From IMG/VR virus record IMGVR_UViG_3300033148_006706, positions 1 to 64,000 of that record: a stretch of 64,000 nucleotides of DNA. One strand, written 5' to 3'. This document shows, piece after piece, positions 25,724 to 50,425 of this stretch. The stretch is from a virus. The position numbers and the translations under genes are program-made. Positions within the stretch are counted from its first letter, which is position 1; every line of letters begins with the position of its first letter. The notes beneath the pieces are model-generated. The model was not told the origin of the DNA, searched no databases, and saw nothing but the letters and a program-made list of their open reading frames with translations.

Positions 25724-26422
25724 ATGGGAGATTATACTATTAAAGAAGTACTTCAAATTACAGATAAATATTATCCAAATAGATTTACATATAAAGAACG
25801 TGATGTAGTAAAACGTATTGTTATAAAAGAAGTGAAAGAAGTACAACGACATGATATTCCTGGAGGCCCGAGAGTATATACGAAATATGTTATTGAAAGC
25901 AAATCATGGCCACAGTATTATCCTTATTTTACTAGAACAGATAGCAGAGGTAGACGTAGACGCTATCAAAGAAGTGTAGCTCATTATTATGATGTAATAT
26001 TCGAAACGGATAGATTGAGCTTAAATACTAAGAAATGGGTGGGTAGAGTTGGCAGTGGAAAAAAGTGGAATGCTAGACCGCCACAATCGCAAATAAAAAG
26101 TTTATATCCTGAAACAAGGGAAAAATTTAGAAGAAGGGCTAGAGGTAATCAACAAGAATATAAGAGACTTGTAGAAAGACATAAAAGAAGTGCACCGTAT
26201 CTTGATGTAGGCGATTATAATAGTAGAGTAAATGGAATTATGGGGGATTTTTGTTTTAGACAAGCTTGGGCATATTACACTCATGGCCATCTATTTGGAA
26301 GACAATATTATGGTAACGTACCTTCTTCAATTACAAATCCTAACGCTATTGTTTTTTTCGATAAACATCAATTAAATGTAATTGACCAACTTATGAGAAG
26401 AGGGATCTTAAAAGATGATTAA
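25724..26422 (+). CDS. Arg-rich probable structural protein
   Basis: 232 residues with many Arg, Tyr and Trp: YFTRTDSRGRRRRYQRSVAH, VGRVGSGKKWNARPPQ and REKFRRRARGNQQEYKR. The C-terminal half has YYTHGHLFGRQYYGNVPSSI. Such composition suits a DNA- or RNA-contacting virion component, perhaps in the neck. The ribosome site before ATG 25724 is weak. The 76-base gap upstream holds only a 16-codon GTG frame that I do not trust. The last 8 bases overlap the start of the repeat-protein pseudogene. Confidence 0.55.
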   Translation: MGDYTIKEVLQITDKYYPNRFTYKERDVVKRIVIKEVKEVQRHDIPGGPRVYTKYVIESKSWPQYYPYFTRTDSRGRRRRYQRSVAHYYDVIFETDRLSLNTKKWVGRVGSGKKWNARPPQSQIKSLYPETREKFRRRARGNQQEYKRLVERHKRSAPYLDVGDYNSRVNGIMGDFCFRQAWAYYTHGHLFGRQYYGNVPSSITNPNAIVFFDKHQLNVIDQLMRRGILKDD

Positions 26423-26927
26423 GATTATAAATTTTAAAGAAAAGATTTATGGAAATATGGCAATAGTTTTCCATAGAACTAGCGTTTCAGATTTAGTAAA
26501 TAAAGTTTTTACAAGTGGATTTAAACCTGGTACAGGAGATAAATATGGAAGAGGATTTTATGCTACTTATGAACTTGAGTCACAAGAGCGACCAGAAATG
26601 AAGAAATATGGAACCTGGAAAAATGGAACTTGGAGAAATGGAGTCTGAAAAGACGGAACCTGGAAAAAAGGAATCTGGAAAGATGGGATTTGGGAAGACG
26701 GAGCTTGGGAAGGCGGGCAATGGGAAAAAGGAGTTTGGAAAAAAGGTACCTGGGAAAATGGGATTTGGGAGTATGGAACTTGGGAAAATGGAGATTGGAA
26801 AGATGGAATTTGGGAAAGTGGGGTGTGGAAAGGTGGAAAGATATGGAACCCTCAAACAAAAAAATATCAGTATAGTGACAAAAACCCTTATGATTGCGAA
26901 TGGAGCTTGAGTTATTATAAAAGATAA
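26415..26927 (+). pseudogene. ART-like/GxWxx repeat protein with an internal TGA
   Basis: The N-terminus reads MIKIINFKEKIYGNMAIVFH, then RTSVSDLVNKVFTSGFKPGT and YGRGFYATYEL; the HRTS, SGF and YGxGFYAT order resembles the start of ADP-ribosyltransferase-like phage domains. At about residue 62 it passes straight into GTWKNGTW repeats. TGA at 26646-26648 then stops the frame where every paralog has TGG. Beyond it the same frame continues through some 13 more repeats and the standard cap (GGKIWNPQ, CEWSLSYYKR) to TAA 26925-26927. One base change (TGG to TGA) explains the break. The ART-like part is too short to be a full enzyme. Confidence 0.8.
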
Positions 26928-26960
26928 TAATATTTATGACATAAGGAGGGAGAGTAAAAC

Positions 26961-28253
26961 GTGATTAAAATATTTAAAAACCTGAACCTTCTTGAAAAGA
27001 AAGATCACATTATAAGAAAAATGCCCAATTTGACTAGTGAGCAGAAGGAAGAACTAATAAACTTTTTCAATAGACACCCAAATTATGAAAATAGGGTCGA
27101 TTGGAATAAGTGGAGAACTTTAACATACGAAGATTTTAAAGACATTCTTGAAATTGAATCCAAAACTCAAAGGAAGAAATCCGTTAAGACAAGAGGAATA
27201 AAAGGACTAAAAGAGGGTAAGGATTATATTCAATTGAAGAATTTGCCCGACGATATACAAGGATATATTCCTTTGAATTACGAGGCATCAAAATTTATTG
27301 CTTCTAGATATGTAGGAGGCATTGAAGGAAAATGGTGTACTGCATATCAAAAAACCGATAAATATTGGGAAGAATATAAAAGCTACGGGGTAATTTTTAT
27401 ATATTTAATCAAAGACAATGAAAAATATGCAATAGCTGTTTATCTCGACAATAAAACTTATGAAATTTATAATAAAGATGACGATAAAATTTCTTTTATA
27501 GAAGGCATTAATATTAAATCAGATATATTAAATGATCGAAATGTTTCTCTTTTTGAAAAAGTAAGAAAAGAAATCGGTTTTGAACATTGGATTACCAAAG
27601 CTGAAATATCAAAGGATGCTAAGTTTGAATATGGCGAATTTAGGCAAATAGTTTGGTTAGATGGGGCGTGGTATAAAGGGACTTGGTATAACGGAATTTG
27701 GAAAAATGGAATTTGGAAAAATGGAACTTGGGAAGATGGTTCTTGGAAGAGTGGAACTTGGAAGAGTGGAACTTGGAAGTTTGGAACTTGGGAAGATGGA
27801 ATATGGGAAAATGGAAATTGGATAATGGGATTATGGGAAGATGGAATTTGGAAAGACGGAACTTGGAAAGATGGAACTTGGGAGGATGGAACATGGAAAA
27901 GTGGAATTTGGAACAAAGGGGGATGGACAAAAGGGATATGGGAAGACGGAATATGGAAAAATGGAATTTGGGGTGGAGGAACCTGGGAAAGTGGAATTTG
28001 GAAGGATGGATCTTGGATTAAGGGGACGTGGATTAATGGAACTTGGGAATTTGGAACTTGGTATAACGGAATTTGGAAAAACGGAACTTGGAAAGATGGA
28101 ACTTGGATTGATGGGGAATGGAAAGACGGAATCTGGAAAGATGGAGTATGGAAAGGTGGAAAAATATGGGATCCTCAAATAGAAAAATATCAATATAGTG
28201 ACAAAAACCCCTATGATTGTGAATGGAGCTTAAGTTATTACAAAGAACAATAG
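26961..28253 (+). CDS. GxWxx repeat protein, type A copy 1
   Basis: 430 residues. The type A N-terminal module (about 1-225) begins MIKIFKNLNLLEKKDHIIRK, has LTSEQKEELINFF, and contains a domain centred on GKWCTAYQKT and KYAIAVY that I know only as an unassigned element of large-phage proteins. Residues about 233-398 are some 33 pentapeptides of the GTWKD kind. The end is a fixed cap, GGKIWDPQ...YQYSDKNPYDCEWSLSYYK. Small Gly and large Trp alternate as the small and bulky core residues do in pentapeptide-repeat beta-helices, so a rod-like stalk is likely (inference). GTG start with AGGAGGG upstream. The linker FEHWITKAEISKDAKFEYGE differs from copies 2, 3, 5 and 6. Confidence 0.85.
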   Translation: MIKIFKNLNLLEKKDHIIRKMPNLTSEQKEELINFFNRHPNYENRVDWNKWRTLTYEDFKDILEIESKTQRKKSVKTRGIKGLKEGKDYIQLKNLPDDIQGYIPLNYEASKFIASRYVGGIEGKWCTAYQKTDKYWEEYKSYGVIFIYLIKDNEKYAIAVYLDNKTYEIYNKDDDKISFIEGINIKSDILNDRNVSLFEKVRKEIGFEHWITKAEISKDAKFEYGEFRQIVWLDGAWYKGTWYNGIWKNGIWKNGTWEDGSWKSGTWKSGTWKFGTWEDGIWENGNWIMGLWEDGIWKDGTWKDGTWEDGTWKSGIWNKGGWTKGIWEDGIWKNGIWGGGTWESGIWKDGSWIKGTWINGTWEFGTWYNGIWKNGTWKDGTWIDGEWKDGIWKDGVWKGGKIWDPQIEKYQYSDKNPYDCEWSLSYYKEQ

Positions 28254-28285
28254 TATTTATATTATAAAGATGGTGGTTGAGGGGC

Positions 28286-29563
28286 ATGATCAAAATATTT
28301 AAAAATTTAAACTTACTTGAAAAAAAAGATCATATTATAAGAAAAATACCTAATTTGACTAATGAGCAGAAGGAGGAGCTGATAAACTTTTTCGATAAAC
28401 ACCCAAATTACGAAAATAGAATTGATTGGAACAGGTGGAGGACTTTAACATACGAAGATTTTAAGGGTATTCTTGAAATTGAATCAAAGACTCAGAAAAA
28501 AAAATCCGTTAAGATAAGTGGAATAAAAGGACTAAAAGAGGGTGAGGATTATATTCAACTGAAAGGGTTGCCCGATGATACGCAAGGATACATACCTCTA
28601 AATTACGAGGCTTCAAAATTTATTGCTTCTAGATATGTAGGGGGTATCGAGGGGAGATGGTGTACAGCATATCAAAAAACTAGGGAATATTGGGAAAAAT
28701 ATACAAGTGAGAATATAATCTTAATTTATTTGATTAATAATAATACAAAATATGCAATAGCCGTTTATCCAAATAATAAAACTCATAAAATTTATGATAG
28801 TGATGACAACAAAATTTCTTATATTCCCGGTATTGATATTAACCGAGATATATTAAATAAAAGAAACATTTCTATTTTTGAAAAAATAAGAAGAGAAGTT
28901 GAAGACTATAAGCATTGGATTCATAAAGCTGAAATATCAAGAGACGCTAGATTCGAAATTGATAAAACAAATCAAGTAATTTGGTACAAAGGGACTTGGG
29001 TAGATGGGGTATGGGAAAGGGGAACTTGGATTAATGGGATTTGGTTTGATGGTTATTGGGCAAAAGGAGCTTGGAAGAATGGAATTTGGAGAGGGGGAAC
29101 TTGGGAAAAAGGAACTTGGGAAGACGGAACCTGGGAAAAAGGAATTTGGTATGGCGGGACTTGGAAAGATGGAATTTGGGAACATGGAACTTGGAAAGAT
29201 GGAACTTGGAAATATGGAACCTGGAAAAATGGAGTTTGGGAAAGTGGAACTTGGAAAGATGGAGTCTGGAAAAGCGGAACCTGGAAAAATGGAGCCTGGG
29301 AAAGCGGAACTTGGAAAGATGGAACCTGGAAGCTTGGAATCTGGGAACTTGGGACTTGGATTAATGGAACCTGGGAGTCTGGAACTTGGGAATATGGAAC
29401 CTGGAAAGATGGAGTCTGGGAAGGTGGGGATTGGGACGATGGAAATTGGGAAAAGGGAGTATGGAAAGGTGGAAGGATATGGAATCCAGAAACAGGAAAA
29501 TATCAATATAGCGATAAGAACCCAAACGAATGTGAATGGAGCTTAAGTTATTACAAAAGATAA
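28286..29563 (+). CDS. GxWxx repeat protein, type A copy 2
   Basis: 425 residues from ATG 28286 (a TTG three codons earlier is in frame). It has the same N-terminal module as copy 1 but the second linker form, VEDYKHWIHKAEISRDARFE, entering repeats near residue 233. The array includes the segment KLGIWELGTW, whose DNA at 29330-29359 is identical for 30 bases to part of a type B gene (48555-48584). It ends EGGDWDDGNWEKGVWKGGRI before the common cap, an ending shared with copy 6. Confidence 0.85.
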   Translation: MIKIFKNLNLLEKKDHIIRKIPNLTNEQKEELINFFDKHPNYENRIDWNRWRTLTYEDFKGILEIESKTQKKKSVKISGIKGLKEGEDYIQLKGLPDDTQGYIPLNYEASKFIASRYVGGIEGRWCTAYQKTREYWEKYTSENIILIYLINNNTKYAIAVYPNNKTHKIYDSDDNKISYIPGIDINRDILNKRNISIFEKIRREVEDYKHWIHKAEISRDARFEIDKTNQVIWYKGTWVDGVWERGTWINGIWFDGYWAKGAWKNGIWRGGTWEKGTWEDGTWEKGIWYGGTWKDGIWEHGTWKDGTWKYGTWKNGVWESGTWKDGVWKSGTWKNGAWESGTWKDGTWKLGIWELGTWINGTWESGTWEYGTWKDGVWEGGDWDDGNWEKGVWKGGRIWNPETGKYQYSDKNPNECEWSLSYYKR

Positions 29564-29582
29564 TAATATGGGGGAGTAAAAC

Positions 29583-30725
29583 GTGATTAAAATATTTAAA
29601 AATCTGAACCTTCTTGAAAAAAAAGATCACATTATAAGAAAAATACCTAATTTGACTAGTGAACAGAAGGAGGAGCTAATAAATTTTTTCAATAAACACC
29701 CAAATTACGAGAACAGAATTGATTGGAATAAGTGGAAAACTTTAACATACGAAGATTTTAAAGACATTCTAGGGATTGAATCTAAGACTCAAAGGAAAAA
29801 ATCCGTTAAGATAAGTGGAATAAAAGGATTAAAAGAGGGCGAGGATTATATTCAATTGAAGAATTTGCCTGACGATACGCAAGGATATATCCCTTTGAAT
29901 TACGAGGCTTCAAAATTTATTGCTTCTAGATATGTAGGGGGTATCGAGGGGAAATGGTGTACAGCATACCAAAAAACTAGGGAATATTGGGAAGAATATA
30001 AAAGTGATAGGATAATTTTTATATATTTAATCAAAGACAATGAAAAATATGCAATAGCCGTTTATCCTGACAATAGAACTTATGAAGTTTATGATAAAAA
30101 TGATAACAAAATTTCTTATATTCCCGGTATTGATATTAAACGAGATATATTAAATAAAAAAAATATTTCTATTTTTGAAAAAATAAAAAGAGAAGTTGAA
30201 GACTACAAGCATTGGATTTATAAAGTTAAAATATCAAAAGACGCTAGATTTGAAATTGATAAGACGAATCGGGTATTTTGGTATGAAGGGACTTGGATAG
30301 ATGAGGTATGGGAAAGTGGAACCTGGAAAGATGGAACTTGGCTTGATGGTTATTGGACAGATGGAACTTGGGAGAATGGAACCTGGGAAAATGGTACTTG
30401 GGAATATGGAATCTGGGAAAATGGGGTTTGGAAAGACGGAATTTGGAAAGATGGAACTTGGTTGAAGGGGGTTTGGAAAGAGGGAATTTGGAAAAATGGA
30501 GTTTGGGAAAATGGAACTTGGGAAGATGGGACATGGGAGGATGGGTTTTGGGAAAATGGAATCTGGAAAGATGGAACTTGGAAAGATGGAACTTGGAAGG
30601 ATGGAATCTGGAAAGACGGAGTGTGGAAAGGTGGAAAGATATGGAACCCTCAAACAAAAAAATATCAGTATAGTAACAAAAACCCCTATGATTGTGAATG
30701 GGGTTTAAGCTATTACAAGAAATAA
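29583..30725 (+). CDS. GxWxx repeat protein, type A copy 3
   Basis: 380 residues, GTG start with GGGGGAG before it. The N-terminal module is nearly identical to copy 2, including TREYWEEYKS and PGIDIKRDILNKKN. The repeat array is shorter (about 30270-30640, near 24 units). One early unit reads IDEVW in place of IDGVW, a Gly-to-Glu change in an otherwise fixed position. The cap is KIWNPQTKKYQYSNKNPYD followed by CEWGLSYYKK. The 19-base gap after copy 2 shows the tight tandem arrangement. Confidence 0.85.
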   Translation: MIKIFKNLNLLEKKDHIIRKIPNLTSEQKEELINFFNKHPNYENRIDWNKWKTLTYEDFKDILGIESKTQRKKSVKISGIKGLKEGEDYIQLKNLPDDTQGYIPLNYEASKFIASRYVGGIEGKWCTAYQKTREYWEEYKSDRIIFIYLIKDNEKYAIAVYPDNRTYEVYDKNDNKISYIPGIDIKRDILNKKNISIFEKIKREVEDYKHWIYKVKISKDARFEIDKTNRVFWYEGTWIDEVWESGTWKDGTWLDGYWTDGTWENGTWENGTWEYGIWENGVWKDGIWKDGTWLKGVWKEGIWKNGVWENGTWEDGTWEDGFWENGIWKDGTWKDGTWKDGIWKDGVWKGGKIWNPQTKKYQYSNKNPYDCEWGLSYYKK

Positions 30726-30761
30726 TAATACTTATATTATAAAAATGGGGGGTTGAGGGGC

Positions 30762-31550
30762 ATGATCAAAATATTTAAAAATTTGAACCTTCTTGAAAAA
30801 AAAGATCACATTATAAGAAAAATGCCCAATTTAACTAGTGAACAGAAGGAAGAAATAATAAATTTTTTTAATAAGTGTCCAAATTACGAGAATGGAATTG
30901 ATTGGAACGAGTGGGAAACTTTAATATATGAAGATTTTAAGAATATTCTTAAAATTGATCCCAGAATTCAAGGAAGGGAATTTGTTAAAATAAGCGGAAT
31001 AAAAGAATTAAAGAGGGGTGATGATTATATTCAATTGAAGAAAGCCCCTAATAATGTGCAAGAATACACCCCCTTAGATTATAAAGCGTCAAAATTTATT
31101 ATTTCTGAAAAAGAAATCGGTTTTGAGCATTGGATTACCAAAGCTGAAATATTAAAGGAGGCTAAATTTAAATTTGATGGGCCTACACAAATAATTTGGT
31201 TAAGTGGAACTTGGAAAAACGGAACTTGGAAAAACGGAACTTGGAAGGATGGGATTTGGGAAAACGGAACCTGGCAAACTGGAACTTGGGAAAATGGAAC
31301 TTGGAAAAACGGAACTTGGGAAGACGGAATTTGGAAAAATGGAACTTGGAAATTTGGAACTTGGAAAGGTGGGGTTTGGAATGATGGGATTTGGGTAATG
31401 GGAATTTGGAAAGATGGAAATTGGAAAGATGGAGCATGGAAAGGCGGGGAGATATGGAATCTAGAAACAAGAAAATATGAATATAGCGATAAAAACCCAT
31501 ACGAATGTGAATGGAGTTTAAGTTATAGAAAGTTTCCATATCAATATTAA
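30762..31550 (+). CDS. GxWxx repeat protein, type A copy 4, internally deleted
   Basis: 262 residues from ATG 30762. The N-terminal helix-rich start is kept, but the sequence jumps from DYKASKFIISE straight to KEIGFEHWITKAEILKEAKF. About 90 residues containing the WCTAY domain are missing, with the frame preserved. The linker matches copy 1. More point differences than in other copies (EEIINFFNKCPNYENGIDWN, YTPLDYKAS) indicate that this copy is under weaker constraint. The array has about 17 units and the usual cap, then a few extra residues (FPYQY). Confidence 0.8.
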   Translation: MIKIFKNLNLLEKKDHIIRKMPNLTSEQKEEIINFFNKCPNYENGIDWNEWETLIYEDFKNILKIDPRIQGREFVKISGIKELKRGDDYIQLKKAPNNVQEYTPLDYKASKFIISEKEIGFEHWITKAEILKEAKFKFDGPTQIIWLSGTWKNGTWKNGTWKDGIWENGTWQTGTWENGTWKNGTWEDGIWKNGTWKFGTWKGGVWNDGIWVMGIWKDGNWKDGAWKGGEIWNLETRKYEYSDKNPYECEWSLSYRKFPYQY

Positions 31551-31563
31551 AAAGAGGTGTGTT

Positions 31564-31797: not shown

Positions 31798-31930
31798 TAC
31801 TAAGATATGAAAAGATAGATTAAGATGATGCTTGGTTAGAAAAATGATTACAATTTTTGAATTTTAAGAAAAAACTTATAGAGTTTAAGTTATAATAAAA
31901 AATAGATTAGAGAGATATGCGGTATAAAAG

Positions 31931-33163
31931 ATGGTTAGAATATTCAAAAATTTAAATTTACTCGAAAAGAAAGATCATATTATAAGAAAAATGCCCAATT
32001 TGACTAGTGAACAAAAAGAAGAGCTGATAAATTTCTTTAGTAGGCATCCTAACTATGAAAATAGAATTGATTGGAATAAGTGGAAAACTTTAACATACGA
32101 AGATTTTAAAGACATTCTAGGAATTGAATCAAAGACTCAAAGAAAGAAATCTGTTAAGATAAGTGGAATAAAAGGATTAAAAGAGGGCAAGGATTATATT
32201 CAACTGAAAGGGTTGCCTGACGATATGCAAGGATACATTCCTTTAAACTATGAGGCATCAAAATTTATTGCCTCTAAATATGTAGGAGGCATCAAAGGAA
32301 AATGGTGCACAGCATATCGAAAAAGTAAGGAATATTGGGAAAAATATACAAGTAAGAGTATAATCTTAATTTATTTGATTGGTAATAATACAAAATATGC
32401 AATATCCGTTTATCTAGATAATAGAACTTATGAAATTTATGATAGTAAGGATAACAAAATTTCTTATATTCCCGGTATTGATATTAAACGAGATATATTA
32501 AATAAAAGAAATATTTTTATTTTTGAAAAAATAAGAAGAGAAGTTGAAGACTACAAGCATTGGATTTATAAAGTTAAAATATTAAAAGGCGCTAGATTTG
32601 AAATTGATAAGACAAATCAAGTAATTTGGTATAAAGGAATTTGGATAGATGGAGTATGGGAAAGGGGAACTTGGGTTAATGGAGTTTGGCTTGATGGTTA
32701 TTGGACAGATGGAACTTGGGAAGACGGAACTTGGAAAGAGGGGACTTGGGAAAAGGGAACCTGGAAAGACGGAACCTGGGAAAAAGGAATTTGGTATGGC
32801 GGGATTTGGAAAGATGGGATCTGGGAATTTGGAACTTGGAAAGATGGAACTTGGAAAGGGGGGACTTGGGAAAAGGGTACTTGGGAAGACGGAACTTGGG
32901 AAGATGGCTTCTGGGAAAACGGAACTTGGGAAGATGGGACTTGGCTGGAGGGGGTTTGGAAAGATGGAACTTGGGAAGACGGAACTTGGGAAGATGGAAC
33001 TTGGAAATATGGAGTCTGGGAAGGTGGAGTTTGGAAAGATGGAATTTGGGAAAGTGGAGTGTGGGAAGGTGGAAAGATATGGAACCTGAAAACAAAAAAA
33101 TATAAATATAGCGATAAGAACCCATACGAATGTGAATGGAGTTTGAGTTATTACAAAAGATAA
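31931..33163 (+). CDS. GxWxx repeat protein, type A copy 5
   Basis: 410 residues, starting MVRIFKNLNLLEKKDHIIRK from ATG 31931. The N-terminal module has GGIKGKWCTAYRKSKEYWEK, with Arg and Ser changes next to the WCTAY motif, and the VEDYKHWIYKVKILKGARFE linker. Repeats cover about 32625-33080, with many units of the GTWEDGTW type and a LEGVW unit also seen in other copies. The cap reads KIWNLKTKKYKYSDKNPYE followed by CEWSLSYYKR. Confidence 0.85.
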   Translation: MVRIFKNLNLLEKKDHIIRKMPNLTSEQKEELINFFSRHPNYENRIDWNKWKTLTYEDFKDILGIESKTQRKKSVKISGIKGLKEGKDYIQLKGLPDDMQGYIPLNYEASKFIASKYVGGIKGKWCTAYRKSKEYWEKYTSKSIILIYLIGNNTKYAISVYLDNRTYEIYDSKDNKISYIPGIDIKRDILNKRNIFIFEKIRREVEDYKHWIYKVKILKGARFEIDKTNQVIWYKGIWIDGVWERGTWVNGVWLDGYWTDGTWEDGTWKEGTWEKGTWKDGTWEKGIWYGGIWKDGIWEFGTWKDGTWKGGTWEKGTWEDGTWEDGFWENGTWEDGTWLEGVWKDGTWEDGTWEDGTWKYGVWEGGVWKDGIWESGVWEGGKIWNLKTKKYKYSDKNPYECEWSLSYYKR

Positions 33164-33196
33164 TAATATTTATGGCGTAAAAAGGGAGAATAAAAG

Positions 33197-34384
33197 ATGA
33201 TTAGAATATTTAAAAATTTAAACTTACTTGAAAAAAAAGATCATATTATAAGAAAGATGCCCAATTTGACTAGTGAGCAGAAGGAAGAGCTAATAAACTT
33301 TTTCAACAAACATCCAAATTATGAAAACAGGATTGATTGGAACAAATGGAAAACTTTAACTTATGATGATTTTAAAAATGTTCTAGGGATTGAATCTAAA
33401 ACTCAGAGAAAAAAATCTGTCAAAACAAAAGGAATACGGGGATTAAAGGAAGGCGAGGATTATGTTCAATTAAAAGAACTTCCAAATAATGTAGAGGCAT
33501 ATATTCCTTTAAATTATGAGGCTTCAAAATTTATTGCCTCCAAATATGTAGGGGGTATCGAGGGAAAATGGTGTACTGCATATCAAAAAACCGATGAGTA
33601 TTGGAAGAAATATACAAATGAGAGTATAATCTTAATTTATTTAATTAGTAATGATACAAAATATGCAATAGCCGTTTATCCAAATAATAAAACTCATAAA
33701 ATTTATGATAGTGATGATAACAAAATTTCTTATATCCCTGATATTTATATTAACCGAGATATATTAAATAAAAGAAACATTTCTATTTTTGAAAAAATAA
33801 GAAGAGAAGTTGAAGATTATAAGCATTGGGTTCATAAAGCTGAAATATCGAAAGACGCCAAATTCGAAATTGATAAGACAAATCAAGTAATTTGGTACAA
33901 AGGGGTTTGGATAGATGGATTATGGGAAAGGGGAACCTGGAAAGATGGAACTTGGGAATATGGAATCTGGAAAGATGGTATCTGGGAAAAAGGAATCTGG
34001 AAAGATGGTATTTGGGAAGACGGAACTTGGAAATTTGGAACTTGGGTATACGGAATTTGGATAGATGGAACTTGGGAAAACGGAACTTGGAAGAAGGGAA
34101 CCTGGGAAGATGGAGTCTGGGAAACCGGAACTTGGGCGAAAGGAACTTGGGAAGATGGAATCTGGAAAGATGGGGTTTGGAAAGATGGAACCTGGGAGTC
34201 TGGAACTTGGGAATATGGAACCTGGAAAGATGGCATCTGGGAAGGTGGGGATTGGGACGATGGAAATTGGGAAAAGGGAGTATGGAAAGGTGGAAGGATA
34301 TGGAGTTCAAAAACAGAAAGATATGAATATAGTGTAAAAAATCCTTATGACTGTAAATGGAGTTTAAGCTATAAAAAACGTTAG
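33197..34384 (+). CDS. GxWxx repeat protein, type A copy 6
   Basis: 395 residues, ATG 33197 with AGGGAG upstream. It is the most divergent full N-terminal module (KTKGIRGLKEGEDYVQLKEL, LPNNVEAYIPLNYEAS), yet WCTAYQKTDEYW is kept. The array ends with the same EGGDWDDGNWEKGVWKGGRI segment as copy 2, then a cap in which several conserved positions have changed (IWSSKTERYEYSVKNPYDCK). It is the last member of cluster A; a consensus late promoter follows. Confidence 0.85.
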   Translation: MIRIFKNLNLLEKKDHIIRKMPNLTSEQKEELINFFNKHPNYENRIDWNKWKTLTYDDFKNVLGIESKTQRKKSVKTKGIRGLKEGEDYVQLKELPNNVEAYIPLNYEASKFIASKYVGGIEGKWCTAYQKTDEYWKKYTNESIILIYLISNDTKYAIAVYPNNKTHKIYDSDDNKISYIPDIYINRDILNKRNISIFEKIRREVEDYKHWVHKAEISKDAKFEIDKTNQVIWYKGVWIDGLWERGTWKDGTWEYGIWKDGIWEKGIWKDGIWEDGTWKFGTWVYGIWIDGTWENGTWKKGTWEDGVWETGTWAKGTWEDGIWKDGVWKDGTWESGTWEYGTWKDGIWEGGDWDDGNWEKGVWKGGRIWSSKTERYEYSVKNPYDCKWSLSYKKR

Positions 34385-34429: not shown

Positions 34430-34435
34430 GAACGA

Positions 34436-35302: not shown

Positions 35303-35551
35303 ATGACAGATATTGAAATTTTTTTACAAAGAAACATGGACAGGATGGATAGGGACACGTTGATAGGGGTGATGGCCGATAAATTTAATTTGAGCTTGGA
35401 ACAAGCAGAAGAAATAATTATGGAAAGGGAAAAAATAAGAAAAAAAGAATCCCTTATAACAGTAACAAGATCTTTTTTAATAGAGACGAATAATATAGTT
35501 TTTGCTTTAGAAAAAGGGGATAAAATTAATATATTACATAGAGTTGAGTAA
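35303..35551 (+). CDS. Small protein made of a helical region plus GDKI module
   Basis: 82 residues. The first 50 are helical (MTDIEIFLQRNMDRMDRDTL, then a UBA-like spacing FNLSLEQAEEIIMERE). The last 30 are VTRSFLIETNNIVFALEKGD then KINILHRVE, the shared module. AAGGA precedes ATG 35303. The stop overlaps the next ATG by one base (TAATG), so it is translated together with the type C repeat protein, which carries the same module. Confidence 0.6.
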   Translation: MTDIEIFLQRNMDRMDRDTLIGVMADKFNLSLEQAEEIIMEREKIRKKESLITVTRSFLIETNNIVFALEKGDKINILHRVE

Positions 35552-42282: not shown

Positions 42283-42301
42283 CAAACAAGGGGATTGATT
42301 G

Positions 42302-43774
42302 ATGATCATTATAAGAAAATTAAATGAATATTTATCAGGATTTGATTATCGTCTTCCTGATGACCCCGAATTGATTTTATACGATTTCTATTTCTTAACT
42401 ACTTACGGGAACGATATAGAAACAAATATGCCTGAGGCGGACTTCGCAATAAAGGAGGCTTCTGATAAAATTGTAGAGAGTCTTCATGCCCACATGTTAA
42501 AGGCAGTAAAATATGCGCTATGTAGTGAAATTAGACATATTTTCGATGGATTAAGAGATATTGAATCTCTTGAAGAATTAGCAAAAATGGATAAAAAAAT
42601 AAATAGATTTGTTAATTCATATTCTAGAAATTATGAATTAAGTACTGGTATTGATCTTACGAATCGAGAACTTCGAGGTGTACTTACAAAAGAAACAGAA
42701 TCAAGCAGACTAGCCTCTTATGAAGCTATTATTGAAACACAAAAAGAATTAAATATGACAAATATGGAATTGGCTAAAATTTTTAGTAGCCTGTTTTTAG
42801 AATTAGATTGGAAACGTGATTACGGGGGAAGAGCTTGGGATATGATAGTTGATGGATATAAAATGCTTCTGAAAGCTAAGAGGAAAAATGAAAAAATCAT
42901 TGCCATCGATCACACTTATGATTTACAGCATAATACTGATACGGTTTTTAATAAACTGCAGATATACTATAAAGATAGCTCTGGATATGGGTGGATTAGA
43001 AGAGCGTTAAATTGGAAAAAGGATGTAGAAGATATTCGTTTTTTTTATGAAAAAGTATCACCTCAACTACGGAGAATAGTAGCTTTTATAGCGTATAATG
43101 TGTACGGACTTACAATGGAAGATAAATCTTATCAGCATAGAGTTTGGACAGGCGGAATTTGGGCGGGGGGAACTTGGAATGATGGAATTTGGAAAAATGG
43201 GATTTGGAAAGATGGAACTTGGAATGACGGGGCTTGGATTAACGGAACCTGGGAGAAAGGAGCCTGGAGAAATGGAATTTGGAAAAATGGAATATGGCAA
43301 AATGGAACCTGGGAGCTTGGAACCTGGGAAAATGGTACTTGGGAATATGGAATTTGGGAAAACGGTACTTGGAAATATGGAACTTGGTTTTACGGAACTT
43401 GGAAAAATGGAACTTGGGAAGACGGGGAATGGAAAGATGGGGTCTGGGAATATGGAGTTTGGAAAAATGGAGTTTGGAAGTATGGAACTTGGTATAATGG
43501 AACCTGGGAAAACGGGACTCGAGAAAGTGGAACATGGCTAGAAGGGGTTTGGAAAAATGGAGTTTGGGAAGATGGTACTTGGTTGTATGGAGTTTGGAAA
43601 GATGGGGTTTGGAATGATGGAATCTGGGAAAATGGGATTTGGGAAGATGGAATTTGGAGAAACGGAGCTTGGGAGGGTGGCAAAATATGGAATCCTAAAA
43701 CAAGAGAATATGAATATAGTAATAAAAACCCATACAAGTGTGAATGGAGTTTAAGCTATAGAAAAGAGCGATAA
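42302..43774 (+). CDS. GxWxx repeat protein, type B copy 1
   Basis: 490 residues from ATG 42302 with AAGGGGAT upstream. The type B N-terminal module (about 1-275) is helical: PDDPELILYDFYFLTTYG, SLHAHMLKAVKYALCSEIRH, IIAIDHTYDLQHNTDTVFNK and SPQLRRIVAFIAYNVYGL. I know similar blocks only from unassigned large-phage proteins. It is the most divergent of five copies in the middle third. The linker EDKSYQHRVWTGG is like copy 5. About 36 repeats follow; one reads GTRES, a Trp-to-Arg change. The cap is as in type A. Confidence 0.85.
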   Translation: MIIIRKLNEYLSGFDYRLPDDPELILYDFYFLTTYGNDIETNMPEADFAIKEASDKIVESLHAHMLKAVKYALCSEIRHIFDGLRDIESLEELAKMDKKINRFVNSYSRNYELSTGIDLTNRELRGVLTKETESSRLASYEAIIETQKELNMTNMELAKIFSSLFLELDWKRDYGGRAWDMIVDGYKMLLKAKRKNEKIIAIDHTYDLQHNTDTVFNKLQIYYKDSSGYGWIRRALNWKKDVEDIRFFYEKVSPQLRRIVAFIAYNVYGLTMEDKSYQHRVWTGGIWAGGTWNDGIWKNGIWKDGTWNDGAWINGTWEKGAWRNGIWKNGIWQNGTWELGTWENGTWEYGIWENGTWKYGTWFYGTWKNGTWEDGEWKDGVWEYGVWKNGVWKYGTWYNGTWENGTRESGTWLEGVWKNGVWEDGTWLYGVWKDGVWNDGIWENGIWEDGIWRNGAWEGGKIWNPKTREYEYSNKNPYKCEWSLSYRKER

Positions 43775-43792
43775 AACAAAGGTCTGTCAGCA

Positions 43793-45343
43793 ATGATTAA
43801 AATAATTCGAGTAAAGCCAAAAATAAAAGAAATCTTCTCAAACTTTGTATACAGAATGCCTGATGATCCTGAGTTGATTTTATACGATTTTTATTTCTTA
43901 ACTACTTACGGAAAAAATATAGAAACAAACATGCCCGAAGCAGATTTTGCGATAAACGAAGCGGTCGAACAGATTATTGAAAATCTTCATGCACACATGT
44001 TAAAGGCTGTAAAATATGCTCTATGCGCTGAGATTCGTCATATTTTTGATTCTACAGCAGCTGAATCATTAAAGCAATTAGTTGAAAAAAACAAGAACAT
44101 TGGAACCTTTATCAAGACATATTATAAAAAATATATCACTTTTACAGAAATAAGTAGAACACCGCTTGATTTCTTACTTGATGATAGATCGGGGGAGGCT
44201 GACAGATTAAGAAACGTTCTTTCTAAAGAGACAGATTCAAAAAGAAAAAGCTCATACAGGGCAGTTACAGAGACACAAAAAGATTTAAAGATAACAAACT
44301 CTGAACTGTCAAAAATATTTGAATACGTATTCTTAAAGCTTGTTTGGCAACCACAATTCGGAGGCCCAGCATGGGCCGATATTGCCAAAGCTTATTATAG
44401 ACTTCTAAGGGCTAAGAGGAAAAACGAAAAAATCATTGCCATTGACCATGCCTATGATTTACAGCATAACACCGATACGGTTTTTAATAAGTTGCAGATA
44501 TACTATAAAGATGGTTATAGTTGGATTAAAGATGCTTTGGATTGGAAAAGAGATGTAAAGGATATTCGATCTTTTTACAATAAAGTTTCTCCTCAATTAA
44601 GGAGAATAGTAGCCTTCATAGCATACAATGTATATGGGCTTACAATGGAGGGAGGAACTCCTCGTTCAGTTGATCAAGATAAAATCTGGACGAGGGGGCT
44701 CTGGAAGGGGGGAACCTGGACAGGAGAAATTTGGAAATATGGAATTTGGGAGAAAGGAACTTGGAAAGGCGGGACTTGGAAAGATGGAATTTGGAAAGAC
44801 GGAACTTGGGAAGATGGAATTTGGAAAGACGGAATTTGGAAAAATGGAACTTGGAAAAATGGAACTTGGAAGGGTGGAACTTGGGAAAGTGGAAGTTGGA
44901 GAAATGGAATTTGGGAAGATGGGATTTGGAAAGAAGGTGATTGGGAAAATGGAACTTGGAAAGATGGATTCTGGATGTACGGATATTGGAAAAATGGTAC
45001 CTGGAAGAGCGGAACTTGGAAAGATGGGATTTGGAAAAGTGGAACCTGGAAAAATGGAACTTGGAGATATGGAACTTGGAAAAGTGGAACTTGGAAAAAT
45101 GGAACCTGGAGGGATGGGATCTGGGAAAATGGAACTTGGGAAGATGGAACTTGGTTTAAAGGGGTTTGGAAAAATGGAACTTGGAAAAATGGAACTTGGG
45201 AAAATGGATTTTGGAAAGATGGGGTTTGGGAAGGCGGAATATGGAAGAGTGGGGAGATATGGAATCCGGAGACAGATGAATATGAATATAGTGATAGAAA
45301 TCCATACGAATGTGAATGGAGTTTAAGTTATAGAAAAGGATAA
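43793..45343 (+). CDS. GxWxx repeat protein, type B copy 2
   Basis: 516 residues, beginning MIKIIRVKPKIKEIFSNFVY. It carries the type B module in the form shared with copies 3-5 (LKQLVEKNKNIGTFIKTYYK, PLDFLLDDRSGEADRLRNVL). The linker to the stalk is EGGTPRSVDQDKIW, shared with copy 3 and nearly with copy 4, but not with copies 1 and 5. Repeats run about 44690-45260, then the cap with GEIWNPETDEYEYSDRNPYE. AAAGGT precedes the ATG. Confidence 0.85.
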   Translation: MIKIIRVKPKIKEIFSNFVYRMPDDPELILYDFYFLTTYGKNIETNMPEADFAINEAVEQIIENLHAHMLKAVKYALCAEIRHIFDSTAAESLKQLVEKNKNIGTFIKTYYKKYITFTEISRTPLDFLLDDRSGEADRLRNVLSKETDSKRKSSYRAVTETQKDLKITNSELSKIFEYVFLKLVWQPQFGGPAWADIAKAYYRLLRAKRKNEKIIAIDHAYDLQHNTDTVFNKLQIYYKDGYSWIKDALDWKRDVKDIRSFYNKVSPQLRRIVAFIAYNVYGLTMEGGTPRSVDQDKIWTRGLWKGGTWTGEIWKYGIWEKGTWKGGTWKDGIWKDGTWEDGIWKDGIWKNGTWKNGTWKGGTWESGSWRNGIWEDGIWKEGDWENGTWKDGFWMYGYWKNGTWKSGTWKDGIWKSGTWKNGTWRYGTWKSGTWKNGTWRDGIWENGTWEDGTWFKGVWKNGTWKNGTWENGFWKDGVWEGGIWKSGEIWNPETDEYEYSDRNPYECEWSLSYRKG

Positions 45344-45380
45344 TTATTATTAGAAAGTTATAAAAAGGGAAGTAATAATA

Positions 45381-47144
45381 ATGATTAAAATAGTTCGAGT
45401 AAAACCGAAAATAAAAGAAATTTTCTCAAACTTTGTATATAGGATGCCTAAAGATCCCGAGTTAATTCTGTACGATTTTTATTTTTTGACTACTTACGGG
45501 AAAGATATAGAAACAAATATGCCTGAGGCTGACTTTGCAATAAAGGAGGCTTCTGATGAAATTGTAGAATCCCTTCATACCCACATGCTAAAGGCAGTAA
45601 AATATGCCCTGTGTGCCGAGATTCGTCATATTTTTGATGCTATAGCAACCGAATCATTGAAACGATTGGTTGGGGAAAACAAGAATATAGGGGCATTTAT
45701 TAAAGTGTACTATAGAAAATATCTTGCCTTTATAGAAATAGGTAAAGTACCGCTTGACTTTTTACTCGATGATAGATCGGAGGAGGCTGGCAGATTAAGA
45801 AACGTTCTCTCTAAAGAAACTGATTTGAAAAGGAAAAGCTCATATAGAGCGATTGCAGAAACGCAAAAAGAGTTGAAGATAACAAATTCGGAACTGTCAA
45901 AAATATTTGAATATTTATTCTTAAATCTTATTTGGTATTCACAATTCGGAGGTTTTGCATGGGCCGATATTGCCGAAGCTTATTATAGACTTTTAAAGGC
46001 TAAGAGGAAAAATGAAAAAATCATTGCTATAGATCATGCCTATGATTTGCAACACAATACCGATATAGTTTTCAATAAATTACGGCTATATTACAAAGAT
46101 GGTTATAGTTGGATTAAAAGAGCACTGGATTGGAAAAAGAATGTGAAGGATATTCGATCTTTTTACAAAAAAGTTTCTCCTCAATTAAAGAGAATAGTAG
46201 CCTTCATAGCATACAATGTATACGGGCTTACAATGGAGGGGGGAACTCCTCGTTCAGTTGATCAAGATAGAATCCGGACAGGAAGATCCTGGGAGGGAGG
46301 AACCTGGACAGGGGGAATCTGGGAAAACGGGACTTGGGAAAAAGGAACCTGGGAAAACGGAACCTGGAAAAACGGAACTTGGAAACTTGGAATCTGGGAA
46401 CTTGGGACTTGGGAAAATGGAACTTGGGAGTCTGGGACTTGGGAATATGGAACCTGGAAAAATGGAGTCTGGAAAGACGGAGATTGGGAAGATGGAATTT
46501 GGAAGGGAGGAATTTGGGAATATGGAACTTGGATGAGTGGAGTCTGGAAATTTGGAACTTGGAAAGACGGAACATGGGAAAATGGGGTTTGGGAAAAAGG
46601 AATTTGGGAAAAAGGAACTTGGAAAAGTGGAGCTTGGAAGAACGGGGTTTGGAAAAATGGAACTTGGAAAGATGGAAGATGGGAAGATGGAATCTGGAAA
46701 GATGGAACTTGGGAAGACGGGGTTTGGAAAAATGGAACTTGGGAAAATGGGACTTGGGAAAATGGAATTTGGTTAGAAGGGATCTGGAAAAATGGAACTT
46801 GGAAAAACGGAACTTGGGAATATGGATTCTGGAAAAATGGGGTTTGGAAAGATGGAACTTGGGAAGATGGAACATGGGGAGAGGGGGTCTGGAAAGAAGG
46901 AATTTGGAAGGGAGGAATTTGGGAATACGGAACTTGGAATAATGGAATTTGGAAATTCGGAACCTGGAATAATGGAATTTGGAATAATGGGATTTGGGAA
47001 GATGGAGTGTGGAAAGATGGGGTTTGGAAAGATGGAGCATGGAAAGGTGGGGAAATATGGAATCCAAAGACAAATGAATATGAATATAGTAATAAAAACC
47101 CATACGAATGTGAGTGGGGTTTAAGTTATAGAAAAGAGCAATAA
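45381..47144 (+). CDS. GxWxx repeat protein, type B copy 3
   Basis: 587 residues, with about 52 repeats. It contains GTWKLGIWELGTW followed by ESGTWEYGTW, the same run of units as in type A copy 2 (28286), which points to exchange between clusters. Two internal blocks repeat the order GGIWEYGTW within the gene. The N-terminal module is close to copy 2, with scattered changes (GGFAWADIAEAYYRLLKAKR). The cap ends CEWGLSYRKEQ. Confidence 0.85.
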   Translation: MIKIVRVKPKIKEIFSNFVYRMPKDPELILYDFYFLTTYGKDIETNMPEADFAIKEASDEIVESLHTHMLKAVKYALCAEIRHIFDAIATESLKRLVGENKNIGAFIKVYYRKYLAFIEIGKVPLDFLLDDRSEEAGRLRNVLSKETDLKRKSSYRAIAETQKELKITNSELSKIFEYLFLNLIWYSQFGGFAWADIAEAYYRLLKAKRKNEKIIAIDHAYDLQHNTDIVFNKLRLYYKDGYSWIKRALDWKKNVKDIRSFYKKVSPQLKRIVAFIAYNVYGLTMEGGTPRSVDQDRIRTGRSWEGGTWTGGIWENGTWEKGTWENGTWKNGTWKLGIWELGTWENGTWESGTWEYGTWKNGVWKDGDWEDGIWKGGIWEYGTWMSGVWKFGTWKDGTWENGVWEKGIWEKGTWKSGAWKNGVWKNGTWKDGRWEDGIWKDGTWEDGVWKNGTWENGTWENGIWLEGIWKNGTWKNGTWEYGFWKNGVWKDGTWEDGTWGEGVWKEGIWKGGIWEYGTWNNGIWKFGTWNNGIWNNGIWEDGVWKDGVWKDGAWKGGEIWNPKTNEYEYSNKNPYECEWGLSYRKEQ

Positions 47145-47162
47145 AATAAGGAGCTATCAGCA

Positions 47163-48953
47163 ATGATTAAAATAATTCAAGTAAAATCAAAAATGAAAGA
47201 AATTTTCTCAAATTTTGTATACAGGATGCCCAAAGATCCTGAGTTAATTTTGTACGATTTTTATTTCTTGACTACTTACGGGAACGATATAGAAACAAAT
47301 ATGCCTGAGGCTGATTTTGCAATAAAAGAGGCTTCTGATGAAATTGTTGAAAATCTTCATGCACACATGCTAAAGGCAGTAAAATATGCCCTGTGTGCCG
47401 AGATTCGTCATATTTTTGATGCTACAGCAATTGAATCATTAAAACAATTGGTTGAGAAAAACAAGAACATTGGGGCTTTTATTAAAATGTACTATAAAAA
47501 ATATCTCACCTTTACAGATGTAGGTAAGGCCCCACTTGATTTTTTACTTGATGATAGATCGGGCGAGGCTGACAGATTAAGAAATGTTCTCTCTAAAGAA
47601 ACCGATTTAAGAAGAAAATGCTCATACAGAGCAGTTACAGAGACACAAAAAGAGTTGAGGATAACAAACTCTGAACTGTCAAAAATATTTGAATACCTAT
47701 TTTTGAATCTTGTCTGGCAATCACAATTCGGTGGTTCAGCATGGGCTGATATTGCCAAATCTTATTATATGCTTTTAAAAGCCAAGAGGAAAAATGAAAA
47801 AATCATCGCTATTGATCATGCTTACGATTTGCAACATAATACCGATACGGTTTTCAATAAATTACAGTTATATTATAAAGACGGTTATAGTTGGATTAGA
47901 AATGCTTTAGATTGGAAAAGGGATGTAGATGATATTCGTTCTTTTTATGAAAAAGTTTCCCCCCAGCTAAGGAGAATAGTGGCATTTATAGCATACAATG
48001 TATATGGGATTACGATGGAGGGGTGGCTTTCCCATTCAGTTGATCAAGATAAAATTTGGACAGGGGGGTCCTGGAAAGGAGGAACTTGGACAGGAGGGAC
48101 TTGGGAAAATGGGACATGGGAAAAAGGAATTTGGGAAAACGGTATTTGGGCGGGTGGAACTTGGGTAAGTGGGGCCTGGAAAGATGGAGTTTGGGAAAGT
48201 GGAACTTGGAAATTCGGAACTTGGACGGATGGGACTTGGGAAAATGGAACTTGGGAAAATGGGATTTGGGAATATGGAACTTGGAAAGATGGAACTTGGA
48301 TATATGGAATTTGGAAAAACGGAACTTGGTTATTTGGAACTTGGTATGACGGGATTTGGAAAAAGGGGGTCTGGATATATGGAACTTGGAAAAATGGAAC
48401 TTGGGAAGATGGAACTTGGAAAAATGGAACCTGGAAAGATGGAACTTGGAGAAATGGAGTCTGGAAAGATGGAACCTGGAAAAATGGAGTCTGGGAACTT
48501 GGAACCTGGAAAGATGGAGTTTGGGAAAGTGGAATTTGGAAATATGGAACTTGGAAGCTTGGAATCTGGGAACTTGGGACTTGGGAAAATGGAATTTGGG
48601 AAGATGGGGATTGGGAAGATGGAACCTGGAAAAATGGAATTTGGAAAGGTGGGGATTGGGAAGATGGAACCTGGAAAGACGGGATCTGGGAACTTGGAAC
48701 TTGGAAAGATGGAGTTTGGAAAAGTGGAACTTGGGAGGATGGAGTTTGGAAAAGTGGAACTTGGGAAAATGGAGCCTGGACAATGGGGACTTGGGAAGAT
48801 GGGATCTGGGAAAATGGAACTTGGAAAGAAGGAACCTGGAAAGACGGGATATGGAAAGGTGGGGGGATATGGAATCCAGAAACAAAAGAATATGAATATA
48901 GTAATAAAAACCCATACGAGTGTGAGTGGAGTTTAAGCTATAGAAAGAGATAA
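47163..48953 (+). CDS. GxWxx repeat protein, type B copy 4 (longest)
   Basis: 596 residues and about 54 repeats, the longest stalk in the family. Shares the KLGIWELGTW block with copy 3 and with type A copy 2. It has several EDGDWEDGTW and KGGDWEDGTW units not common elsewhere. The linker reads EGWLSHSVDQDKIW, a variant of that in copies 2 and 3. Begins MIKIIQVKSKMKEIFSNFVY; AAGGAG precedes the ATG. Confidence 0.85.
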   Translation: MIKIIQVKSKMKEIFSNFVYRMPKDPELILYDFYFLTTYGNDIETNMPEADFAIKEASDEIVENLHAHMLKAVKYALCAEIRHIFDATAIESLKQLVEKNKNIGAFIKMYYKKYLTFTDVGKAPLDFLLDDRSGEADRLRNVLSKETDLRRKCSYRAVTETQKELRITNSELSKIFEYLFLNLVWQSQFGGSAWADIAKSYYMLLKAKRKNEKIIAIDHAYDLQHNTDTVFNKLQLYYKDGYSWIRNALDWKRDVDDIRSFYEKVSPQLRRIVAFIAYNVYGITMEGWLSHSVDQDKIWTGGSWKGGTWTGGTWENGTWEKGIWENGIWAGGTWVSGAWKDGVWESGTWKFGTWTDGTWENGTWENGIWEYGTWKDGTWIYGIWKNGTWLFGTWYDGIWKKGVWIYGTWKNGTWEDGTWKNGTWKDGTWRNGVWKDGTWKNGVWELGTWKDGVWESGIWKYGTWKLGIWELGTWENGIWEDGDWEDGTWKNGIWKGGDWEDGTWKDGIWELGTWKDGVWKSGTWEDGVWKSGTWENGAWTMGTWEDGIWENGTWKEGTWKDGIWKGGGIWNPETKEYEYSNKNPYECEWSLSYRKR

Positions 48954-48991
48954 CAAAATAATAAAATTATAGAAAAAAGGGGTTGCCAGCA

Positions 48992-50425
48992 ATGATTAAA
49001 ATAATTCGAGTAAAACCAAAAATAAAAGAAATTTTCTCAAATTTTGTATACAGGATGCCTGATGATCCTGAGTTAATTCTGTATGATTTCTATTTCTTGA
49101 CTACTTATGGGAAAGATATAGAAACAAACATGCCTGAGGCTGATTTTGCGATAAACGAAGCGGTCGAACAGATTATTGAAAATCTTCATACCCACATGTT
49201 GAAGGCAGTAAAATATGCCTTGTGTGCCGAGATTCGTCATATTTTTGATGCTACAGCAACCGAATCATTAAAACAATTAGTTGAAAAAAATAAGAACATT
49301 AGAACCTTTATCAAGACATATTATAAAAAATATATCACTTTTACAGAAATAAGTAGAACACCGCTTGACTTTTTACTCGATGATAGATCGGGCGGGGCTG
49401 ATAGATTAAGAAACGTTCTTTCTAAAGAAACAGATTCAAAAAGAAAAAGCTCATACAGGGCAATTACAGAGACACAAAAAGAGTTAAAGATAACAAACTT
49501 GGAACTGTCAAAAATATTTGAATACCTATTTTTGAATCTTGTCTGGCAATCACAATTCGGTGGTTCAGCATGGGCTGATATTGCTAAATCTTATTACATG
49601 CTTTTAAAAGCCAAAAGGAAAAATGAAAAAATCATTGCCATTGATCATGCCTATGATTTGCAGCATAATACTGATACGGTTTTTAATAAGTTGCAGATAT
49701 ACTATAAAGATGGTTATAGTTGGATTAGAGATGCTTTGGATTGGAAAAGGGATGTAGAAGATATTCGATTTTTTTACAATAAAGTATCGCCTCAACTACG
49801 GAGAATAGTAGCTTTTATAGCGTACAATGTATATGGGATTACGATGGAGGATAAACTTTATCAACATGGAGTTTGGACAGGGGGAGCTTGGAAAGGTGGA
49901 ATTTGGACAGGAGGGACTTGGAAAAAAGGTACTTGGATATATGGAACATGGGAAAATGGTATTTGGGAAGACGGAACTTGGGAAAGTGGAACTTGGAAAA
50001 ACGGAACTTGGAAAAACGGAACTTGGAAATTCGGAACTTGGGTAGACGGAACTTGGAAAAGAGGTACTTGGGAAAACGGGGTTTGGCAAAATGGAACATG
50101 GAAAGATGGAACTTGGATATATGGAATTTGGAAAAGTGGAATTTGGAAAAATGGATTCTGGGAGGACGGAATTTGGGAACTTGGAACTTGGGAAAATGGA
50201 GATTGGAAGAACGGAACTTGGAGGGATGGGATTTGGAAAGATGGAATTTGGAAAAATGGAATATGGCAAAATGGAACCTGGGAAAAAGGAGTTTGGAAAG
50301 ATGGAGTTTGGAAAGATGGAATTTGGAAAAACGGCAAAATATGGAACTCAGAGACAAGAGAATATGAATATAGTAATAAAAACCCATACGAGTGTGAGTG
50401 GAGTTTAAGTTATGGTAAAAAATAA
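48992..50425 (+). CDS. GxWxx repeat protein, type B copy 5
   Basis: 477 residues from ATG 48992 (an upstream TTG is in frame). The N-terminal half is almost identical to copy 2 (NIRTFIKTYYKKYITFTEIS), its middle to copy 4 (NLVWQSQFGGSAWADIAKSY), and its linker EDKLYQHGVWTGG to copy 1, so it appears to be a mosaic. About 31 repeats follow, then a cap with NGKIWNSETREYEYSNKNPY. Last member of the family; the phosphatase gene follows. Confidence 0.85.
   Translation: MIKIIRVKPKIKEIFSNFVYRMPDDPELILYDFYFLTTYGKDIETNMPEADFAINEAVEQIIENLHTHMLKAVKYALCAEIRHIFDATATESLKQLVEKNKNIRTFIKTYYKKYITFTEISRTPLDFLLDDRSGGADRLRNVLSKETDSKRKSSYRAITETQKELKITNLELSKIFEYLFLNLVWQSQFGGSAWADIAKSYYMLLKAKRKNEKIIAIDHAYDLQHNTDTVFNKLQIYYKDGYSWIRDALDWKRDVEDIRFFYNKVSPQLRRIVAFIAYNVYGITMEDKLYQHGVWTGGAWKGGIWTGGTWKKGTWIYGTWENGIWEDGTWESGTWKNGTWKNGTWKFGTWVDGTWKRGTWENGVWQNGTWKDGTWIYGIWKSGIWKNGFWEDGIWELGTWENGDWKNGTWRDGIWKDGIWKNGIWQNGTWEKGVWKDGVWKDGIWKNGKIWNSETREYEYSNKNPYECEWSLSYGKK

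What the first reader, a model, noticed from the sequence alone, without database searches (positions are those of the whole stretch)
26415..50425. Thirteen-member family of Trp pentapeptide stalk proteins
Thirteen genes, together most of 24 kb, encode long tandem G-x-W-x-x repeats ending in the same cap (KIWNP...KNPY.CEWSLSY). This is a large share of a phage genome for one repeat class. Alternation of Gly with Trp suggests a regular beta rod with a Trp ladder. Possible roles are a set of fibres or adhesins with varying length, or head proteins delivered with the DNA. I know of no described phage system with this architecture at this copy number.
Basis: partly seen in the sequence, partly recalled or inferred. 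Interest (0 to 1): 0.8.

Follow-up and report, generated by a model that had tools for sequence, protein, structure and literature searches.

The report
Trp-cored rods on phage head proteins
A virus of bacteria carries twelve intact genes (and one broken one) for proteins that end in a short rigid rod built on tryptophan, and a conserved protease-cut tag at their start suggests that they are loaded into the virus head and probably injected with its DNA, a design found in many other large phages but, as far as we could find, not described.

Summary
In detail: 13 copies of the cap, each after 12-53 G-x-W-x-x repeats, at window 26415-50425 of a 139,904-bp phage contig. Twelve genes are intact; the copy at 26415 is a remnant (truncated N-domain, in-frame TGA). 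The N-domains are under strong purifying selection (dN/dS 0.09-0.20). The repeat is a Gly/Trp variant of the pentapeptide-repeat fold: AlphaFold2 gives a period-5 square beta-helix matching MfpA (VIA Z 14.4, 1.5 A over 98 residues). At 4 repeats per turn the rods are only 2-6.4 nm long, so these are not fibres. The key new evidence is outside the stalk: the variable N-terminal domains start with a 9-25-residue peptide ending in [L/I]-x-E, the cut motif of T4-type prohead proteases. The Glu is invariant in alignments of two unrelated N-domain families. The motif is enriched in W-repeat proteins (27/30 versus 28%; one per locus 16/19 versus 4.9 expected). The phage has a gp21-like protease and a gp23-like major head protein with the same motif at the aligned site. 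Best reading: a modular class of T4-type internal head proteins (capsid-targeting peptide, domain, Trp beta-helix, genome-specific cap), probably ejected with the DNA. Packaging and ejection are inferred, not shown.

The parts
26415..26927 (+). broken copy: N-terminal stretch of an ART-like 'HRT' domain (type D), about 14 repeats, cap; in-frame TGA at 26646-26648
   Evidence: N-part aligns to the L090 type-D domain, score 193 versus shuffles 31+-5
26961..28253 (+). type A ('WCTA') protein, 33 repeats + cap
28286..29563 (+). type A protein, 32 repeats + cap (ORF also opens at TTG 28277)
29583..30725 (+). type A protein, 21 repeats + cap; AlphaFold2 model mb6077766affa
30762..31550 (+). type A protein with most of the WCTA domain deleted in frame, 16 repeats + cap
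31931..33163 (+). type A protein, 29 repeats + cap
33197..34384 (+). type A protein, 26 repeats + cap
35551..36528 (+). type C protein (EFPDxxQRxAVC motif, then a GDKI motif), 34 repeats + cap
42299..43774 (+). type B protein, 35 repeats (one degenerate) + cap
43793..45343 (+). type B protein (phrog_20946 match), 34 repeats + cap
45381..47144 (+). type B protein, 50 repeats + cap
47163..48953 (+). type B protein, 53 repeats + cap; the one type-B copy with M instead of L/I at P3 (MKE)
48992..50425 (+). type B protein, 31 repeats + cap; AlphaFold2 model mf5555dba42f5
19364..20944 (+). gp21-like prohead protease fused to a coiled-coil (scaffold-like) C-terminal part
   Evidence: aligned to T4 gp21, score 100 versus shuffles 33+-5.4; not found by PF03420 itself
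22632..24071 (+). gp23-like major head protein with LTE at the position aligned to the T4 gp23 cleavage site
54792..56369 (+). tail sheath (context: the W genes lie between head and tail genes)

Best explanation
These are modular internal head proteins of a T4-type phage. Plan: (1) a 9-25-residue N-terminal targeting peptide ending in [L/I]-x-E; (2) a variable effector-like domain (types A-D here; also amidoligase-like and other domains in relatives); (3) a Trp-pentapeptide square beta-helix 2-6 nm long; (4) a C-terminal cap that is similar within a genome and different between genomes. In the proposed cycle the peptide brings the protein into the prohead core, the gp21-like protease removes it during head maturation, the mature protein stays with the DNA, and it enters the host on infection, where the N-domains act on host targets or defences. 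The rod may keep the protein narrow and stiff, or give the cap a fixed distance to a phage-specific partner. Shown here: anatomy, predicted fold, conservation and enrichment of the [L/I]xE peptide, the protease and MCP homologues, purifying selection, cap linked to genome. Inferred: packaging, cleavage, ejection, all enzymatic roles and the purpose of the rod.
For: N-termini: [L/I]xE near the N-terminus in 27/30 long-N-domain W-repeat proteins versus 209/748 other ORFs of the same loci (p 5e-12), while [L/I]xD and [L/I]xK are not enriched; one per locus 16/19 versus 4.9 expected. The Glu is an invariant column in type A (15 and 10 sequences) and in type B (7 sequences, P3 = L or I in all), although residues before it are poorly conserved. 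Further type-B proteins without any W repeats mostly carry it at the same place. T4 head proteins read from the T4 record have the same form (IPII and IPIII MKTYQEFIAE|A, gp23 FLTE|A), and gp21 specificity L/I-X-E and the 10-residue capsid-targeting sequence are described in PMC9026906. Protease and MCP; Peptidase_S77 in 9 of 21 records searched, including PspYZU05 and T4; gp23-type MCP in 9 of 24 W-repeat records. Fold. Selection. Cap identity 0.64 within a genome across different N-classes versus 0.25 between genomes within one N-class. Jumbo Salicola phage SCTP-2 has paralogous proteins of the same N-domain with nearly identical N-termini (MKVKHITQYLFE) and different repeat tails, plus an S77 protease.
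Against: [L/I]xE is short: 28-36% of ordinary ORFs have one near the N-terminus, and GIWE in the stalk also fits it. Types C and D of the window do not fit it cleanly, one type-B copy has MKE, and one relative has VVE. No proteomics was found for any of these phages. PF03420 does not recognise the window's protease. In several relatives the W genes are far from the head genes (G018, G021). Models rest on 8-15 sequences (pLDDT 72 and 77, pTM 0.44 and 0.52), and outward residues show no lag-4 periodicity, so four repeats per turn rests on the model alone. In LR745206 and G015 the same repeats lie inside 1,667-2,344-residue proteins, a different use. N-domain functions are unknown.
Confidence: 0.62

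Rival explanations
1. Packaged in the head by the same signal but structural: an internal scaffold or inner-body component that stays in the capsid, with the rods acting as spacers or cross-links.
For: Same N-terminal and protease evidence; many copies; rods of several lengths; cap linked to genome, as if it binds a phage-specific partner.
Against: Variable N-domains that include ART-like and amidoligase-like types suit injected effectors better; N-domains are under strong constraint.
Confidence: 0.17
2. Intracellular DNA-mimic proteins of the MfpA/Qnr kind, made after infection, that bind gyrase or another DNA-binding protein.
For: Best structural matches are MfpA, Qnr and AlbG.
Against: Stalk net charge is only -18 to +3; large N-domains; conserved N-terminal [L/I]xE; no A(D/N)LXX consensus. 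A shared fold shows no function.
Confidence: 0.1
3. External fibres or adhesins of varying length.
For: Repetitive rods; genes between head and tail modules; W repeats occur inside very large proteins of unknown role in some huge phages.
Against: Rod length 2-6.4 nm; targeting-like N-terminus; intracellular-type N-domains; the phage's long tail-region gene (69593-76315, 2,240 aa) was not among the W-repeat matches in its genome.
Confidence: 0.07
4. Selfish or neutral repeat expansion without function.
For: Simple-looking repeats, a deletion derivative (30762) and one broken copy (26415).
Against: dN/dS 0.09-0.20 at dS mostly 0.5-1.9 and 12 intact ORFs; similar proteins in dozens of other phages.
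Confidence: 0.02

Closest known systems
T4 internal head proteins IPI, IPII, IPIII and Alt (capsid-targeting sequence, gp21 processing)
   Same: Short N-terminal peptide ending in [L/I]xE; gp21-like protease and gp23-like MCP in the same genome; variable cargo behind a similar peptide; an ART-like cargo in one type
   Different: No sequence homology of the cargo shown; much larger proteins; C-terminal Trp beta-helix and cap, which the T4 proteins lack; twelve copies
Pentapeptide repeat proteins (PF00805; Rfr fold; MfpA, Qnr, AlbG, HetL)
   Same: Period of five and predicted square beta-helix, 1.5 A over 98 residues to MfpA
   Different: G-x-W-x-x instead of A(D/N)LXX; no Pfam match at E<=1; not strongly acidic; fused behind other domains; own C-cap
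Trp-repeat protein of Pseudomonas phage PspYZU05 (ASD52006.1, annotated 'phosphatidylinositol 4-phosphate 5-kinase 5-like')
   Same: Same repeat and N-cap in a T4-like phage with an S77 protease
   Different: One short protein without a large N-domain; a MORN-type name is not supported by Pfam for the window proteins
phiKZ/SPN3US ejection and inner-body proteins (PMC5694885, PMC9026906)
   Same: Large set of protease-processed head proteins, some paralogous
   Different: Propeptides there are often over 100 residues and cut at S/A-x-E or A-x-E; no Trp beta-helix known
Paralogous 'WCTA' proteins of Salicola phage SCTP-2 (gp34, 37, 40, 45, 46)
   Same: Same N-domain type and near-identical N-termini MKVKHITQYLFE in several; S77 protease present
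   Different: C-terminal part is a different, Trp-poor repeat

Membership tests
Pentapeptide repeat family (PF00805 and relatives) | A(D/N)LXX consensus | tested here: not met
   Position i-2 is Gly in 99%, position i is Trp in 100% of 385 units
Pentapeptide repeat family (PF00805 and relatives) | Match to a pentapeptide-repeat profile | tested here: not met
   No such Pfam match at E<=1 in any of seven intact window W proteins scanned; NCBIfam none
Pentapeptide repeat family (PF00805 and relatives) | Quadrilateral beta-helix fold | tested here: met
   Predicted models only: VIA Z 14.4 to 2bm4 and Z 10.5 to QnrB1, 12.0 to a synthetic solenoid; handedness not measured
T4-type internal head proteins | Short N-terminal peptide ending in L/I-x-E | tested here: met
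   Types A and B; types C and D of the window: not clear
T4-type internal head proteins | Prohead protease of the gp21 type in the genome | tested here: met
   19364-20944 aligns to T4 gp21, score 100 versus shuffles 33+-5.4, max 54; PF03420 itself does not find it
T4-type internal head proteins | Presence in the virion, cleavage and ejection | not testable with these tools
   Needs proteomics and infection experiments
T4-type internal head proteins | Sequence homology to IPI, IPII, IPIII or Alt | not tested
   No direct comparison made; the ART-like label of type D rests on motif resemblance and had no Pfam or PDB sequence match
MORN / PIP5K-like proteins | Match to a MORN profile | tested here: not met
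   No MORN match in Pfam at E<=1 for the window proteins
Tail fibres | Long, usually trimeric, near distal tail genes | tested here: not met
   Rods 2-6.4 nm (model-based), genes between MCP and sheath; oligomeric state not tested

The most novel reading that the evidence does not exclude
A widespread, undescribed class of capsid-delivered phage proteins shares one chassis: a removable targeting peptide, an exchangeable effector domain, a Trp-cored beta-helix about as thin as DNA, and a genome-specific cap. Phages amplify and reload this chassis, and the stiff thin rod lets folded effectors lie beside the DNA and pass down the tail.
Probability: 0.4. Interest if true: 0.82.

Novelty: new variant of a known kind. 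Interest (0 to 1): 0.64.

Why it matters
If right, a simple rule (a short N-terminal peptide ending in L/I-x-E before a conserved domain, with or without a Trp rod) would let one list the proteins that large T4-type phages carry into the cell, a set now hidden among 'hypothetical proteins' and likely rich in anti-defence and host-takeover functions. It also adds a Gly/Trp version of the pentapeptide beta-helix, and a natural set of rods of many lengths, to known protein architecture.

Tried and rejected
T4-type late promoters: TATAAATA not enriched (16 found, 17.7 expected). Sigma-70 and terminator scans near chance. Lag-4 pattern of outward residues to confirm four repeats per turn: none. Length variation between strains: three other contigs are essentially 100% identical here. 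Function of N-domains: Pfam, PHROGs, NCBIfam and PDB sequence searches gave no name except weak amidoligase (L045) and unknown-function PHROGs; Foldseek and VIA rows were filled by the stalk, so the N-domain folds remain untested. tblastn of the type A and C N-domains against phage records: no match, although profile search finds type A in SCTP-2. Cellular origin: only 7 weak matches in 84,980 species genomes, mostly MAG contigs. Recoding of TGA as Trp to rescue the 26415 copy: rejected, TGA is a normal stop. Papers on Trp pentapeptides in phages: none found.

Full report
What is there. The window is the first 64 kb of a 139,904-bp phage record. A six-frame scan finds 13 caps with the reported motif, all on the + strand, each after a tandem G-x-W-x-x run. 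Twelve belong to intact ORFs; the first copy (26415-26927) has a truncated N-domain and an in-frame TGA, and TGA is a normal stop here. The intact genes cover 15.9 of 24.0 kb, and several follow each other within 18-38 bases. Among 385 repeat units Gly and Trp are nearly fixed, i-1 is mostly T/I/V, i+1 K/E, i+2 D/N. Pairwise dN/dS of the N-domains is 0.09-0.20 at dS mostly 0.5-1.9. The proteins are therefore old, kept copies, presumably expressed.

Anatomy. Four N-terminal types share one stalk and cap: A (six copies, one with most of the domain deleted), B (five), C (35551) and D (the remnant). Relatives in IMG/VR show the same plan with these and further N-domains: type D in L090 (aligned to the remnant with score 193 versus shuffles 31+-5), an amidoligase-like one in L045, and several unnamed ones. 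A short stretch before the first repeat (pWl..A....A.i....ivW..G.W) recurs by eye across types and looks like an N-cap. Cap identity is 0.64 between different N-classes of one genome but 0.25 between genomes within one N-class: stalk and cap evolve with the genome and N-domains are exchanged. Some phages have sets of 5-7 (L044, L073).

Fold. AlphaFold2 gives 3-residue strands every five residues in a type A model and the same solenoid behind an all-helical N-domain in a type B model. The closest solved structures are pentapeptide-repeat proteins: Foldseek's best rows for type A, VIA Z 14.4 at 1.5 A over 98 residues to MfpA, and Z 10.5 to QnrB1 for type B (there the first four rows are left-handed-helix transferases with rmsd above 11 A). 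With four repeats per turn and 0.48 nm rise the stalks are 2.0-6.4 nm long. Membership in the sequence family PF00805 is not met: the consensus differs and no profile matches. Four per turn rests on the models, since outward positions show no lag-4 signal.

The N-terminal peptide. T4 head proteins are cut by gp21 after L/I-X-E, and a 10-residue N-terminal peptide of IPIII is enough for packaging (PMC9026906; T4 sequences read). Type A and B proteins have an invariant Glu at the end of a poorly conserved N-terminal peptide, with L or I two residues before it in all sequences of the type A alignments and of the diverse type B alignment; the window copy 47163 has M. W-repeat proteins with long N-domains carry the motif in 27/30 cases against 28% of other ORFs, with no enrichment of control motifs, and in 16 of 19 loci taken once each against 4.9 expected. 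Type B proteins without W repeats mostly carry it at the same place, so it belongs to the N-domain class, not to the repeat. Salicola phage SCTP-2 has paralogues with near-identical N-termini, divergent repeat tails and an S77 protease. The window encodes a protein aligned to T4 gp21 (score 100, shuffles at most 54) and a gp23-like MCP with LTE at the aligned cleavage site. Nine of 24 W-repeat records have a gp23-type MCP and nine of 21 searched records, T4 included, have an S77 protease; several others are fragments.

Interpretation. I take these as T4-type internal head proteins with a Trp beta-helix added. ARTs and other enzymes packaged in myovirus heads are known (PMC9503650), and CTS-like peptides on varied proteins have been suggested as a general means of T4-like phages to load their heads (PMC9026906). 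New here are the Trp rod, the exchangeable N-domains, the genome-specific cap and the copy number. Packaging, cutting and ejection are inferred. The rod being about as wide as DNA and passing the tail folded is speculation from the MfpA-like fold.

Limits. The motif is short, types C and D do not show it cleanly, the models are shallow, the window's protease is not found by PF03420, and no virion data were found. Fibres are unlikely on length; DNA mimicry is possible but the stalks are only mildly charged.

Noticed in passing
window 18912-19301, 21835-22452, 34436-34888, 35303-35551, 35551-36528, 51882-52391: Six proteins share a short motif (I.I..PV.I.....I.L.KGDKI.[IL]L), mostly near an end of the protein; it may be another virion-associated tag.
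   Followed up: partly
window 50475-51818: Dual-specificity phosphatase domain (PF05706/PF00782) fused to a coiled-coil and a further domain, directly after the W cluster; possibly another packaged effector.
   Followed up: no
window 19364-20944: gp21-like protease and a long coiled-coil, scaffold-like part in one 526-residue ORF.
   Followed up: partly
MF360958.1 28933-42463 (L194): Salicola phage SCTP-2 has a cluster of WCTA-domain paralogues, several with near-identical N-termini MKVKHITQYLFE and some with tails made of another repeat (DNPSEE.QLEAVK).
   Followed up: partly
LR745206.1 about 279.5-285.3 kb (L018); G015 about 63.6-64.7 and 98-100 kb: Trp-pentapeptide repeats embedded in very large proteins (1,667-2,344 aa) of large phages, a different use of the same repeat.
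   Followed up: no
L073 2838-6731: Seven short Trp-repeat proteins in tandem without large N-domains.
   Followed up: no
genome 90-102 kb (L010): A run of minus-strand genes that look like glycan synthesis (sialic-acid-synthase-like, glycosyltransferase-like, sugar-nucleotide dehydrogenase-like), judged by eye only.
   Followed up: no
genome 138433-139904 and window 221-1018: Very similar Dam-like methylase genes at both ends of the contig; tandem copies or assembly overlap.
   Followed up: no
window 39251-39306: One contig (L013, 3300033153_010210) lacks about 60 bases here; the rest of the region is essentially identical in the related contigs.
   Followed up: no
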